A program made the position numbers and the translations under genes. Of a stretch of DNA of 64,000 nucleotides, positions 27,132 to 55,072 are shown in pieces. The number at the start of each line of letters is the position of its first letter. Position 1 is the stretch's first letter. Location: contig JBBPFI010000006.1 of the NCBI GenBank assembly GCA_037974965.1, forward strand, positions 558,001 to 622,000, given 5' to 3'. This DNA is from Dacryopinax spathularia. Its lineage: Eukaryota > Basidiomycota > Dacrymycetes > Dacrymycetales > Dacrymycetaceae. The notes beneath the pieces were generated by a model. That model worked only from the letters and a program-made list of their open reading frames with translations, made no database searches and was not told the DNA's origin.

Positions 27132-28965
27132 ATGGGAGCGTCCCTATCCGTTGCACAACGAGCATTGCTCACCGTTTGGTTGGAGGTCAGTATGTTTTTC
27201 CACACTTCATTCTTGTATCACTAACGGCCCATATATCAGGGTGTCCTATATGGTTGGCTAGCCCATTCCTTCACGTATCCGAAACCAAGCTCACTTTCGT
27301 CCAAGGGGCAGTCCTGCTGCTATACCTATCCACAGTAACACTGCTCTGCAGTGCGCGAACGTCGGGTTCAATCAACAAGGTACTCAGTATCCGCGAGGTT
27401 GAAAAGACTCCGACACTCATTCTCCTTGGCATGCAGCCCATATTAGGAGCTACAACGGTGATGGTGCTCTTGGCGACGGTGCACCTCAGTAAGTCGCGGT
27501 CCTTAGGGGCGTAATGCTCTCACTCGCGACGGTGTCCAGGCCTGTACTTCTCCACACTGCTGGAACACCTGTCTATGTTCTGCCAGACGACGACAGAAAT
27601 AACGGACTCCACCGCGTGGTCTGTGGGTGCGGCTATAATCATGTTCCAGATGCTGCTCGGAGACGCCGTCAACGTACGTCCCGATCCGTCTGTTCAAAGG
27701 TAGAAGGCTGACCAGGGCTCATTCGACACGCAGCTGTATCGTCTTTGGCTGGTGTGGGAACGCGGTTCTAGGTTGGTGTATGGAGTAGCGGGTCTATTCT
27801 GTATCGGCCTCAGTCAGCCTACGCCTGCCTTTTAGTGGTTGGATTGTGGTTAACTCGTCGCGCTAGTTTGCGCCTGCTTCTATGTCGGTCTGATTACGGA
27901 CCCTCGGTATGCCGACGCTGCGGTACGAGGCCGCCCCTTTCCCTGCTGAACGTAGAGCTCTCTGACTTTCTTTCCTACAGAACGGGCTGCTGATCCTCTT
28001 TGCCGTCGTTGGCCTCCTCCAACCAATAGTAGCATCCGGCATGCTCGTCTTCCGGCTCCTAGAAGTCGAGAAACAGACCCGGACATACGGCACCCGCACA
28101 AGCACAGCAACGAGCTACCTTCCAATCGTGCGGATCATCATCGAGTCTGCCAGCGCGTACGTGGTGATATTAGAGAGGTTGAGCGCCGTCTGCAGGAAGC
28201 GTTCGCGCAGACCCTAGCCCCAAATCTGCATCCTGATTGGTGGAAACCCCTGGAAATGTTCTGGAAAGGACAGGGAAACGCTATCGTCCGCTTGAACTTA
28301 CCTTTGTATCCAGACAACCACACCGGGTGTCACTCTTACAGATAAGTCTTATAAGTGTCCCGAGAGTGAGAGTGCCCTTAAATCAGGGTTTATTAAGGCG
28401 GTTATGGAGAAATATGGGTGTAAAGTTACTAAGTGGGCCCACCGAAAGGGCCATTGGAGTGGCTTAGGGTCTGCGCGAACGCTTCCTGCAGACGGCGCTC
28501 AACCTCTCTATTGTTCGTGTTGGCTGTGTTGTGGTGGTCGAGCGAGGCGGCCTTTGAGGTCGGGGCGGATCTGATGGTTCCGCTTGTTGTGAGTCGTCTC
28601 TTCCTCATTACCCGTATCAGGACCGACAGTGATGATGCTACGCAGCCGTTGGTATGCCATCCGGAGAGAATGCGAGACTAGTCCGTCTGACGAGAACATA
28701 GATTTTTTGCGGCCTCACGACTCGAGTAGGGATGCACACGCTCAAAGTTCGGCTAGCTGCGCCATCAGTTCTTCCAGTCAAGTCGGCTGTCCCGGTGGCG
28801 CCGGAGGGGTTTGATATACCGACCGAGCTGAATCGAACGGGAGGGCCGAATGAGGAGATCGGCGAACGGCCCGGCAGGCATCCGGATGTCGAGGAAGATT
28901 TGGGAGTAGACGGGCACCGAATTTTATGCGTTGAGATTGTTAGACATGCTTCGTGTGATAAGTGA
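27132..28965 (+). CDS. Seven-helix membrane protein T1, exon 8 split by a MITE
   Basis: Uncharacterised Agaricomycete membrane-protein family (~7 helices). Exons: 27132-27185, 27240-27252 (13 nt), 27306-27379, 27437-27488, 27540-27673, 27734-27812, 27867-27922, 27981-28588, 28646-28651 (6 nt), 28702-28965. Landmarks: MLLGDAVN then LYRLWLVWERG, QPIVASGMLVFRLLEVE, SYLPIVRIIIESASAYVVI and IFCGLTTRVGMHTL. Exon 8 contains a 338-bp transposon (28172-28509) flanked by ATT. Without it and one ATT copy the exon is 267 nt, in frame, and the protein is 332 residues. With it, the frame meets a stop inside the element. A GT at 28178 and the CTTCCTGCAG ending at 28491 could splice out 314 nt in frame, adding eight or nine residues in a helix. 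Everything else is intact, so insertion was recent or is tolerated. Paralogues: T2 and T3 at 51.4-55.1 kb. Confidence 0.85.
28172..28509. mobile_element. 338-bp MITE with 45-bp perfect terminal inverted repeats
   Basis: Non-autonomous DNA transposon. The left end starts AGAGAGGTTGAGCGCC at 28172 and is the exact reverse complement of the right end over 45 bases (28172-28216 and 28465-28509). Further pairing resumes after a one-base offset. The flanks carry a 3-bp duplication, ATT at 28169-28171 and 28510-28512. The ~250-bp core has no coding capacity. The superfamily is not certain: a 3-bp duplication fits PIF/Harbinger or CMC, but ATT is not the usual TWA and the termini are not CACT-type. 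Perfect repeats point to a young insertion. No second copy was seen in the window. Confidence 0.9.
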
Positions 28966-51406: not shown

Positions 51407-52846
51407 TTACACCTGGCTCTCAACCGTAGTCTCAGTGTGAGCCTTCGTCTCGTTCTCCTCCGAATCTCGCTCGGCACCGTACGTCTGCACCATGATCTCT
51501 ACACGGTCTTCGCTGCTAGGGAAAGATATCCCCAGAGAGGTGGGTGCGCCATCGGTCGAGGTCTCTGCCATTCCTTGTGCTGCTGGAGGCCGTAGGCTGA
51601 GCAGGGTGTGCACTCCCACTCTGGTTGTCTGGCCGCAGAAGACCTGTGAAGAATTGCTCAAGCTCTGGTTCGAAGACACCAAAACCTAGCTTACCACCGG
51701 CTGCAACAAATTGTCAACCTGCTACACAAACAGCGATGGCGGAACGGACTCACTACGAGAGGAAGCAAGATCTGGCTAGCAACTTGGAAAGCCATCGGAT
51801 CTGCCAGGCGCAGGATCGCGACCCCCACGAGCCCAGCGACGTACACTGCCGCCGACTCAGAGATAATGCTGATAATCGGCCAGTATCTGTATGTCCTCTC
51901 TGCTTGGTACGCTAGCGCTCGTCGTTCTCGTCGCTCTACCGCGATTAAGCGCAGGATGATCAGCCCGCTCGTGATGATCGGCTGGATGATGGTGATCAGG
52001 CCGAATGCTAGGCCGCTCACGACCTCGTGGGAATCAAGATCAAAACGATGGGAAACGCATGGAAGAATCGGCCTACCGAGATCCTTTGCGCTATTACTGC
52101 GGCAGAAGGAGAAGAAGCAGTGTACATGCAAGCGAACACTACGCAATCGTCAGGACGGCATCGAGGATGCTGGGAACGGCTCACCAAAGCTGACGACAAA
52201 TAAGATGCCTGGCACCAGAATTGGACGGTACGATCGCCCCCAGACCAGCCATAGTCGATACAGCTGGTCGAAGACTTGTGAGTGTCCTTCGCAGAACGCC
52301 GATATTGGTCCTTACATTGACGCCGTCTCCCAGCAGGACCTGTACCAGGACCAGTGTCGCGCCAAGCACGCAGGTTGTGTTGATGCCATCCAGAATACAA
52401 TTGTCCAAGTCATCCACCATGAAACTTCGGATATTCAAGACTAGTAATGCAAGACGAAATGCTTCAGTCAGATCAACCAACACGAGTAGGAGCAGAGGAC
52501 AAACCCAGGCCGACCGTTGCCAAGGCTATCATCAGCGTTGTCGATGCCAGTATGAGCTGCAGCCCATGTCATCCGTCTGCGAGTGTATGAGCACGGCTTT
52601 AGCTTACCTTGTTGACAGACTTCGTGCTTCGTGACTTCAGGAGAACGATGACCGTCGACCAATATAGCATTAAGGCTGCGCCTGGAAGGGCTCGGTTTGC
52701 AATTGTTGCCCATAGCCCGGCGGTGCATACCATATAAAGTACACTCCGAGATGTCTTAGTTGGACCCACGCCAATATGGTCAAGTTGCTCACTTGTATAG
52801 AGAAACCTAAGAAACCAGCTTGTAAAGGAGAGAGAGTTGAGCTCAT
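51407..52846 (-). CDS. Seven-helix membrane protein T2 (tandem with T3)
   Basis: Intact member of the T1 family; function unknown. Ten exons: 52793-52846, 52731-52743 (13 nt), 52608-52681, 52505-52556, 52316-52440, 52185-52263, 52077-52138, 51754-52023, 51693-51698 (6 nt, CCGGTG), 51407-51643; 972 nt, 323 residues. It begins MSSTLSPLQAGFLGFSIQ. Helices include AALMLYWSTVIVLL and LILASTTLMIALATVGL. Landmarks are VQVLLGDGVNLYRLWLVWGR, GLITIIQPIITSGLIILRLI, YWPIISIISESAAVYVAGLV and VFCGQTTRVGVHTL. The last ~60 residues are a hydrophilic Ser/Thr/Glu-rich tail. Every internal exon equals T3 in length except exon 8 (270 versus 261), which supports the microexon and the recent tandem duplication. 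Same strand as T3, 801 bp downstream. Confidence 0.88.
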
Positions 52847-53647
52847 GTCGTCTGCAAAGCAGCGGGTATCGTACAGTCAAAGTTAGTAGCTGGATTCTCC
52901 CAGCTCATCGAAACCATATAAATGTGTTTGCATTTGCATTCCGTCCGCTATTTCCGGAGTAGGGCATCTGACCGTAACTGAAGAAGCCCGAGTCTAGGGA
53001 CACTATCGGATAGTTGATACCGCCATCAGTGGGCGATGTTACTGATTTGTCATCTCGTCAGTGCGACCTTCCCCAAGAGACTTCTCCGCATCAGAAGGCT
53101 GCTGAAAATGGATCCTCACATTGCGCACAGCTCGATCACCTCCACACGGTAACAAGGGACACAGCGATACTGCTGCTTCGATTCCGCCTTCGGCAGACAT
53201 CTCGGGTTTGAGGTGCGCTAACAAATGCCCGCAATCTATTCACTTTGTTATGTAATCCGAGGCAAGCACCGTAAAAGATTTGGAGCCTCGTTCCCATGTC
53301 GGGCTCGTTGAGCGCTTGGGTCCTTCAAACGTGAACCGTGCGAAAACATCAGCGAACACCCCGCAATTGCCAGTGTCATTGCGCTACTCCATTTCCAATC
53401 GAAGAAAGACACCTGCGGAACATCGGCAGACGGACCTTGATCGAACATCTGATACTGTACGGCTCTCCTTTGTCGTCGAAGTTTTTCCTGTCGCTTCTGC
53501 CGTGGCATTTCAACGGATAGCCTGTTTGTCATCTGCGGGTTGGCGGACGAGTCGCAGCTCTTTGACTTGCACACAACTAGGACGATAGTCCCCAGTATGT
53601 GCCATGTACTCGTTCGTGGACCGGAACATCAAGGAGCGACGCTGCTA
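52847..53647. other. Spacer between T2 and T3
   Basis: 801 bp that holds the T2 promoter and the T3 3' flank. Short frames only; none resembles the family. Confidence 0.5.
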
Positions 53648-55072
53648 CTACGGCGGCGGCAGGCGATTATTCCCATCCGTGTCCGGCTGCTCCTTTGCTG
53701 TATACTGGATTGTACCAGCGCCGACATCGCTGGACTCGATCGCCGCCTCCGAACCGGGTGTGCTTCCGAGGAAAGACAGCGGAAATGCACGCGGCGACGG
53801 GTCGGACGTGCTTTCTGGCTGATCTTGCGCTGCTGCAAGACGTAGGCTGAGCGTGTGCACGCCAACTCGCGTCGTCTGGCCGCAGAACACCTGTCGAGCG
53901 ACTTTGGAACGAAGCGATATGAAAGCAATGAGTTACCCACCAGCGGCTATCCAGCACTGTCAGGTTCCTTCCATTTACACAAGTTGAGAATGAACTCACC
54001 ACTAGCGGAAGGAGGATGTTGCTGGCTACTTGGAACGCGTTCGGATCTGCCAGCCGGAGGATACCAACGACGACCAACCCCAGCACATAAATTGCGGCCG
54101 ACTCGGAGATGATGCTGATAATCGGCCAATATCGGTACGTCCTCTCCACTTGATACGGTATTGCTCTTCGTTCCACAGCGATCAAGCGTAACACGATCAG
54201 ACCGCTCGTGAGGATCGGTTGCAGGATGGTGATGAATCCGAATGCGAGGAAGCTCACTGCCTTTCCTGGATGAGCACAATCAAGGTGAACCCCGGGGAAA
54301 TGTGGCTCACGGCTATCTCCTCTGCTTCTGCGTTACGTGACGGAGAGGCGACGATATACATGCAGGCGAACACTGTATACATTGGTGAGCAACTCTCGGT
54401 TCAAGCCATTGTGGACCGACCGACACTGAGCACGAATAGGCTGCCGGGAACCACGAGCGGACGATAGGAGCGATCCCATACGAGCCAGAGTCGATACAGC
54501 TGTATATTGTCCAGCACATCGTTGGGAGGTGATTGCGGTAGGAACTTACGTTGACGGCATCTCCAAGGAGCACCTGCGCGACAACGAGCGCAGCGCTTAC
54601 CAGACACGAAGTATCCCTGCCATCCACAACACAGTCTTCATAGTCGCCAAGCATGAAGCTGCGAAGGTTGAGGACTGTATGCAAGTTGAATCAGACAGGT
54701 CCAACGACGGCAAACGGAGATACATACCGAGGCCGGCAGTGGCCAGGATGAGCATAAGAGTCGTCGATGTCAGTACGAGCTAAACGACGTGTCACGTTAT
54801 TGGACCAATGAGGAAGGCAACTGGACTCACCTTGTTCAATGCTCGGTTGCTGCGCGACTTCAAGAGCACGACGAGAGTGGACCAGTATAGCATTAATGCG
54901 GCGCCTGCAATCACCGGGTTTGCGCGTTCTCTTCACTGTACGAAAGTGCCTACCATACAGAATACACTCGAGCGCATATTAGAAAGGAAATCGGACACGA
55001 AGGAGGAGGACAGCTTACTTGCATAGCATAGCTCAGGAAGTTGGCTTGCAAGGAGGATAAGGACGACCCCAT
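53648..55072 (-). CDS. Seven-helix membrane protein T3 (tandem with T2)
   Basis: Intact paralogue of T2. Ten exons: 55019-55072, 54954-54966 (13 nt), 54831-54904, 54728-54779, 54550-54674, 54421-54499, 54311-54372, 54000-54260, 53941-53946 (6 nt, CCGCTG), 53648-53890; 969 nt, 322 residues. It starts MGSSLSSLQANFLSYAMQ. Landmarks are AALMLYWSTLVVLLKSRS, VAQVLLGDAVNLYRLWLVWD, GFITILQPILTSGLIVLRLI, YWPIISIISESAAIYVLGLV and VFCGQTTRVGVHTLSLRLAA. The predicted ~7 helices and C-terminal polar tail suggest a receptor-like topology, but no receptor signature is recognisable. Its start codon abuts a run of C-blocks (G-blocks on the plus strand, 55075-55104). Confidence 0.88.

What the first reader, a model, noticed from the sequence alone, without database searches (positions are those of the whole stretch)
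28172..28509. Young MITE inside a coding exon, with exact excision restoring the frame
The element has 45-bp perfect inverted ends and an ATT duplication, and lies inside a transmembrane segment of T1. Removing it plus one ATT gives GTG GTG ATA TTG TTC, matching paralogues T2/T3 in frame. All other T1 exons are intact, so the insertion is very recent, polymorphic, or tolerated.
Basis: partly seen in the sequence, partly recalled or inferred. Interest (0 to 1): 0.8.

Follow-up and report, generated by a model that had tools for sequence, protein, structure and literature searches.

The report
Jumping-gene fragment interrupting a membrane-protein gene
In an edible jelly fungus, a short non-coding piece of mobile DNA of a known kind (Pangu group) sits inside the coding part of a membrane-protein gene and cuts its protein short, while an apparently intact full-length relative that could move it lies elsewhere in the same genome.

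Summary
Window 28172-28509 is a 338-nt element with perfect 45-nt inverted ends, flanked by ATT/ATT, inside exon 8 of a hand-modelled 10-exon gene (T1) whose protein has about seven hydrophobic segments. Read through, the gene stops 16 codons after residue 216. Leaving one ATT would give the residue spacing of paralogues T2, T3 and a database relative. Contig lengths identify the genome as Dacryopinax spathularia. It holds one more copy (91% identical), a 2514-bp element with the same ends, an open DDE transposase gene and a second gene, a 9.7-kb relative split by an LTR retroelement, and two further short elements. Six of six have exact 3-bp target duplications, five of the form ANT. That fits the Pangu group of PIF/Harbinger-like (PHIS) transposons, not classical TWA Harbinger. 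Intact exons bound the insertion only roughly (about 4% neutral divergence or less). Splicing-out is poorly supported. No empty allele was seen, but the published assembly was purged of haplotypes at 5% heterozygosity, so polymorphism is open and testable with public reads. New member of a known kind.

The parts
28172..28509 (+). 338-nt non-autonomous Pangu-type element (MITE-like)
28172..28216 (+). left terminal inverted repeat, 45 nt, begins AGAGAGGTTGAGCGCC, contains an internal dyad (28188-28198 with 28202-28212)
28465..28509 (-). right terminal inverted repeat, 45 nt, identical to the left
28169..28171 (+). target site duplication ATT, left copy
28510..28512 (+). target site duplication ATT, right copy
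28387..28455 (.). subterminal stretch shared ungapped and in the same register from the end with the 483-nt element on C3
   Evidence: 69 nt aligned, 0 of 1000 mononucleotide shuffles; 40 end pairs were compared
27132..28965 (+). host gene T1, 10 exons in a hand-built model; exon 8 (27981-28588) holds the element
28646..28651 (+). 6-nt microexon of T1 (CCGTTG), inferred
   Evidence: CCGCTG in T2 and CCGGTG in T3
53648..55072 (-). paralogue T2, uninterrupted at the matching place
51407..52846 (-). paralogue T3, uninterrupted at the matching place

Best explanation
The element is a non-autonomous (MITE-like) member of the Pangu group of PHIS (PIF/Harbinger-like) DNA transposons in Dacryopinax spathularia. 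It was most likely mobilised in trans by the transposase, probably with the second protein, of an autonomous relative like the 2514-bp element on C11. Inferred steps: the proteins bind the AGAGAGNTTGAGCGCC end boxes, cut out the element and insert it by a 3-nt staggered cut at an ANT site, here ATT in exon 8 of T1. Shown from sequence: the 341-nt gain shifts the frame, so read-through T1 runs 16 codons past residue 216 (the first two, I and L, as in the empty reading, then 14 foreign ones) and stops, losing its last 114 residues. Inferred: the allele is a near-null of an otherwise intact gene. It is young on the gene's clock and probably segregating. It is potentially reversible, because related Tourist/PIF elements generally excise precisely, apparently through pairing of the 3-nt duplications.
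For: Second copy C3:1168668-1169005, 91%. Shared ends with C11:144528-147041. C11 transposase: 390 codons open from the only ATG in the stretch scanned, with two short introns left out; DDE_Tnp_4 E=1.3e-18; the F[ILV]DGT, YGD and RE.VEW segments, which I take as the DDE residues, align in 6 of 6 sequences. Second gene on the opposite strand, matched in the C1 relative at 64% and 74%, the latter piece with one TGA. TSDs ATT, AAT, AAT, AGT, AGT, AAC: 6 of 6 exact 3-mers, 5 of 6 ANT. 12 of 12 ends begin AGAGAG, though most elements were found with that motif; the C1 element was found by its transposase instead. Pangu definition: PMC4482050, abstract and passages. Uninterrupted paralogues and relative; 10 of 10 other genomic matches to exon 8 run across the junction place. 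Precise excision of Tourist/PIF elements: PMC4561436, abstract and background section.
Against: The copy number is low (2 of the 338-nt type, lower bound), unusual for a MITE. One of six TSDs is AAC, not ANT. The ends are 45 nt, longer than the 11-40 bp reported for Pangu. The interior matches neither autonomous copy; only the ends do. The second protein gave no Myb/SANT hit in Pfam. No placement against reference Pangu transposases was possible. Mobilisation, current activity and polymorphism are untested.
Confidence: 0.87

Rival explanations
1. The insertion is tolerated because the element is spliced out as a new (introner-like) intron, so T1 still works.
For: Of 1330 donor x acceptor pairs between 28080 and 28588 (too-short ones included in that total but skipped), 23 restore an open frame. 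The acceptor CTTCCTGCAG in the right end (4.6) lies within the native range (1.2-10.5). T1 is otherwise intact.
Against: The 12 of 23 in-frame candidates listed use donors scoring at most 3.1, against 3.8-11.0 for the 27 native donors (which were scored on the matrix built from themselves). They would be 272-431 nt long against 46-64 nt native, and would change or delete hydrophobic segment 6.
Confidence: 0.07
2. The interrupted T1 is fixed: T1 is a recently dead pseudogene in this species.
For: The assembly shows only the interrupted form, and T2 and T3 could cover its role.
Against: No second lesion in about 330 codons and 9 modelled introns. Heterozygosity is 5.09% and haplotypic duplicates were purged (PMC11066560, passages), so a missing empty allele in the assembly says little.
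Confidence: 0.3
3. The element is a Tc1/mariner- or classical Harbinger-type MITE with TA or TWA duplication.
For: A TA duplication with ends shortened by one base can be read at 5 of 6 sites, the T1 site included (sequences).
Against: It leaves three further flank matches at each of these five sites unexplained and fails at the AAC site; no site is TAA or TTA. The partner encodes DDE_Tnp_4. TA excision would give 33 residues over a stretch of 32 in T2, T3 and P0121 (counted).
Confidence: 0.04
4. The inverted repeat is a chance or assembly artefact.
For: None found.
Against: A 46-nt perfect inverted repeat, the only one found in the window, with an independent second copy and shared duplications. 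The published assembly is from HiFi reads (PMC11066560, passages).
Confidence: 0.01

Closest known systems
Pangu group of the PHIS superfamily (Han et al. 2015, PMC4482050; called Harbinger2 in Repbase according to PMC12730594, passages)
   Same: ANT 3-bp duplications, ends beginning AG, two-gene autonomous form with DDE transposase, reported in fungi
   Different: Ends of 45 nt or more; one of six duplications is AAC; autonomous element shorter (2514 bp against a reported mean of about 3487 bp); non-autonomous forms are the subject here, which that survey says it may have missed
Tourist/mPing MITEs of PIF/Pong/Harbinger (PMC4561436, abstract and background section)
   Same: Short non-coding element moved in trans, 3-bp duplication, related transposase type; exact excision would restore the frame
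   Different: Duplication is not TWA; very low copy number; excision not shown here
Bacterial IS5-family elements
   Same: Related transposase (NCBIfam IS5 model E=7.8e-6, 25.4 bits against a cut-off of 140); ANT target stated for IS5 in PMC4482050
   Different: Eukaryotic two-gene element with introns
Introner elements (recalled, no call)
   Same: Non-autonomous DNA element inside a coding exon
   Different: No convincing splice sites at or near the ends

Membership tests
Pangu (PHIS) | 3-bp ANT target duplication | tested here: met
   The window element has ATT; family 6 of 6 exact 3-mers, 5 of 6 ANT, one AAC
Pangu (PHIS) | Ends begin AG or GG | tested here: met
   12 of 12 ends begin AGAGAG; most were found with that motif, the C1 element was not
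Pangu (PHIS) | TIR length 11-40 bp (reported range, descriptive) | tested here: inconclusive
   45 nt here; about 50-66 nt in the two autonomous-type copies; outside the reported range
Pangu (PHIS) | Autonomous form with DDE transposase plus a second ORF | tested here: met
   C11 element, DDE_Tnp_4 1.3e-18; second ORF on the opposite strand without a Pfam match reaching its cut-off
Pangu (PHIS) | Transposase falls in the Pangu clade | not testable with these tools
   No labelled reference Pangu transposases at hand
PIF/Harbinger (strict) | TWA target duplication | tested here: not met
   0 of 6
Tc1/mariner (Stowaway) | TA duplication | tested here: not met
   Readable at 5 of 6 sites but leaves the rest of each 3-bp match unexplained, and fails at the AAC site
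Tc1/mariner (Stowaway) | Mariner-type transposase in the partner | tested here: not met
   Partner matches DDE_Tnp_4 and DDE_Tnp_1 only
MITE | Short, non-coding, ends shared with an autonomous partner | tested here: met
   338 nt; ends shared with C11 (44 nt at 84-86% for the sister copy, 28 nt at 89% for this one); every frame of the element has stops, one 53-aa piece tested has no family above its cut-off
MITE | High copy number | tested here: not met
   2 copies of this type, lower bound

The most novel reading that the evidence does not exclude
In four of six elements each end carries a dyad at a fixed distance from the tip whose pairing, rather than its sequence, is largely kept between copies. 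Left and right ends also change together. This suggests that Pangu ends are maintained as hairpin-forming structures, by template switching or selection, and that the T1 insertion is a reversible on/off allele segregating between the two nuclei of a dikaryon (dikaryon inferred from the reported heterozygosity).
Probability: 0.2. Interest if true: 0.55.

Novelty: new member of a known kind. Interest (0 to 1): 0.36.

Why it matters
It gives a low-copy Pangu family in one small fungal genome with its main parts in view: an apparently intact autonomous copy, a broken one, and short derivatives, one of them interrupting an otherwise intact gene. The published reads of a highly heterozygous sample make it directly testable whether such coding insertions segregate and excise exactly. 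The concerted change of the two ends also warns against dating DNA elements by the identity of their inverted repeats.

Tried and rejected
Pattern hits at 3 mismatches are near chance: 25 against 14 for the reversed control, 24 against 27. Only pairs with inverted partners were kept; the stricter pattern gave 6 against 0. The partner scan looked only downstream of the match in 41 loci (2 pairs found), and 4 of the 24 hits had no locus, so further elements may have been missed. Splice-out of the element: scored and found weak. Captured coding sequence inside the element: one 53-aa piece gave nothing reaching a cut-off (best E=0.18) and matched only the two copies in the genome, the second with a stop. 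Rfam: 0 matches at gathering threshold in 27900-28800. Open frames across the empty sites of the C3 and C11 copies (longest 164 and 154 aa) were not tested against families, so no insertion preference for exons is claimed. The structure model of P0121 is too poor to use (mean pLDDT 38.7) and no fold search was made with it. No solved structure matched the transposase at E up to 0.01. The dyad test is mixed. Cells paired 88.3% against 31-49% when slid. 1, 23 and 3 of 500 shuffles reached the paired-cell, two-sided-cell and covariation scores, but 162 and 302 of 500 reached the counts of two-sided pairs and of pair types (7 rows; the 4 ends of the 311- and 483-nt elements were left out and the two identical ends of the window element given once). 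In single-end shuffles 7 of 11 ends tested were at 58 of 2000 or fewer, while C1L (103), n311L (1671), n311R (438) and n483L (466) were not (mononucleotide shuffles). In one search the shuffles were also mononucleotide, 40 end pairs were compared, and the sister copy was not among them; besides the pair reported, C11R and C1L passed the filter (1 of 1000).

Full report
What is there. The window holds one inverted repeat of 20 nt or more within 1.5 kb by the search used: arms 28171-28216 and 28465-28510, 46 of 46 complementary. With the 3-bp duplication set apart, the element is 28172-28509 (338 nt), with 45-nt ends and ATT on both sides. It lies in exon 8 of T1, a + strand gene that I model with 10 exons (27132-28965). 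The nine other exons are open, and all 27 modelled introns of T1 and its paralogues T2 and T3 are GT-AG, 46-64 nt long; the borders were placed by hand at such sites, guided by the paralogues. Insert plus duplication is 341 nt, so the frame shifts. The read-through frame runs 16 codons beyond residue 216 and stops; the first two (I, L) are as in the empty reading (ORF 27966-28217). Leaving one ATT gives 32 residues between ESA and the end of PLV, the same number as in T2, T3 and P0121 (PIV in P0121; counted on the alignment). P0121 is the only relative found at E up to 0.001 among 6730 candidates (38% identity). Of 12 matches to exon 8 in the genome, 2 are T1 itself and the other 10 all run across the junction place. 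I group the hydrophobic windows of T1 into about seven segments; the junction (217) lies in the one at 206-224. T3 whole and the first 216 residues of T1 have no Pfam match at E up to 1.

Which genome. The window is C6:558001-622000 of a 29,246,034-base, 24-contig genome. Of 14 contig lengths seen, 13 (C2-C9, C11, C12, C14, C16, C18) equal scaffold lengths in Table 3 of the Dacryopinax spathularia genome paper. C1 is 1,299 bases shorter than scaffold 1, which is also the difference in total length (PMC11066560, passages). The neighbouring dehydrogenase is 80-84% identical to named Calocera and Dacryopinax proteins. The paper reports HiFi reads, heterozygosity 5.09%, purging of haplotypic duplicates and 1.62% transposable elements; the word Harbinger does not occur in its main text. 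So the assembly need not show both alleles and cannot tell whether an empty one exists. The T1 left flank is found once.

The family. (1) A second 338-nt copy at C3:1168668-1169005 is 91% identical with TSD AAT. (2) A 2514-bp element at C11:144528-147041 with TSD AAT shares the ends. It carries a transposase with two short introns, 390 codons open, PF13359 E=1.3e-18, with aligned DDE segments. A second gene lies on the other strand. (3) A relative at C1:2115787-2125527 with TSD AGT has transposase pieces 82% and 64% identical and a second gene 64-74% identical with one stop in the match. It is cut by an LTR element whose 716-nt LTRs are 98.7% identical and which is flanked by AGACC. (4) Two short elements, each found once, lie on C3: 771629-772111 (483 nt, TSD AAC) and 2412947-2413257 (311 nt, TSD AGT). 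The 483-nt element shares 69 ungapped nucleotides with the window element at the same distance from the end (0 of 1000 shuffles, 40 end pairs compared), so these two have common ancestry outside the ends. The interior of the window element matches neither autonomous copy. Transposase relatives named by sources include Tulasnella, Ceratobasidium, Mycena, Pleurotus, Sphaerobolus and marine animals; the top hit is 49% identical (201 proteins, 120 listed).

Which kind. Six of six target duplications are exact 3-mers: ATT, AAT, AAT, AGT, AGT, AAC. Five fit ANT, none TWA. A TA reading is possible at the five ANT sites but not at the sixth, and leaves three matching flank bases per site to chance. 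Han et al. define Pangu by ANT duplications, describe ends beginning AG or GG and two ORFs, and find it in fungi (PMC4482050, abstract and passages). The fit is good, with three reservations: the AAC site, ends longer than the reported 11-40 bp, and no tree.

How old. Perfect ends are not a clock here. The two 338-nt copies differ at 29 sites (21 transitions): 12 of 90 in the ends and 17 of 248 inside. All five right-end differences fall on positions mirrored in the left end (chance 1.7e-5). At four of them both ends of each copy agree. Template switching between inverted repeats, said to homogenise arms (PMC8604942, only the start of the abstract seen, in the listing), would be a sufficient cause. 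Rough bounds for no disabling substitution in 330 codons plus splice sites give K below about 0.043, and for identical ends below about 0.033. The second bound is void if ends are homogenised, and the first assumes that T1 has been free of constraint since insertion and counts substitutions only.

How it works. Inferred from Tourist/PIF elements: trans-mobilisation, staggered 3-nt cut, generally exact excision through pairing of the duplications (PMC4561436, abstract and background section). In T1 that would make a reversible loss-of-function allele. Splicing-out was scored. Of 1330 donor-acceptor pairs 23 keep the frame, but the 12 listed use donors below all 27 native ones, and introns of 272-431 nt against 46-64 nt.

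A structural aside. Each end of the window, C3 (338-nt), C11 and C1 elements has a dyad of 11-nt arms about the same centre, with 8-10 of 11 Watson-Crick pairs (for one end another centre scores as well). 88.3% of cells pair, against 31-49% when slid; two-sided changes occur at 4 of 11 pairs; two of five shuffle measures are unremarkable. One end of the 483-nt element has a good dyad with the centre shifted; its other end and both ends of the 311-nt element do not stand out from shuffles. Whether this reflects selection on structure, a protein-binding dyad, or repair within the palindrome is open.

Verdict. A real, well-bounded insertion of a known kind of element with an apparently intact partner present. 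It is ordinary in class, but a clean test case for segregation and exact excision of coding insertions in a heterozygous fungus.

Noticed in passing
window 28646-28651; T2 53946-53941; T3 51700-51695: A 6-nt microexon (CCGTTG, CCGCTG, CCGGTG) between two short introns can be modelled in all three paralogues.
   Followed up: partly
L041/L042, C1:2115787-2125527: An autonomous-type Pangu relative is split by an LTR retroelement with 716-nt LTRs 98.7% identical and an AGACC duplication.
   Followed up: partly
L068 1501-1983 and L077 1501-1811: Two short elements, 483 and 311 nt, each found once, with the same AGAGAG ends and 3-bp duplications AAC and AGT.
   Followed up: partly
window 27132-28965, 51407-55072; C6, C4, C11, C18, C5 matches: A family of proteins with about seven hydrophobic segments; no Pfam match for T3 or the first 216 residues of T1, and one database relative found for T1.
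   Followed up: partly
window 28172-28216 and the ends of related elements: Ends of four of six elements contain a dyad whose pairing is largely kept while its sequence changes.
   Followed up: partly
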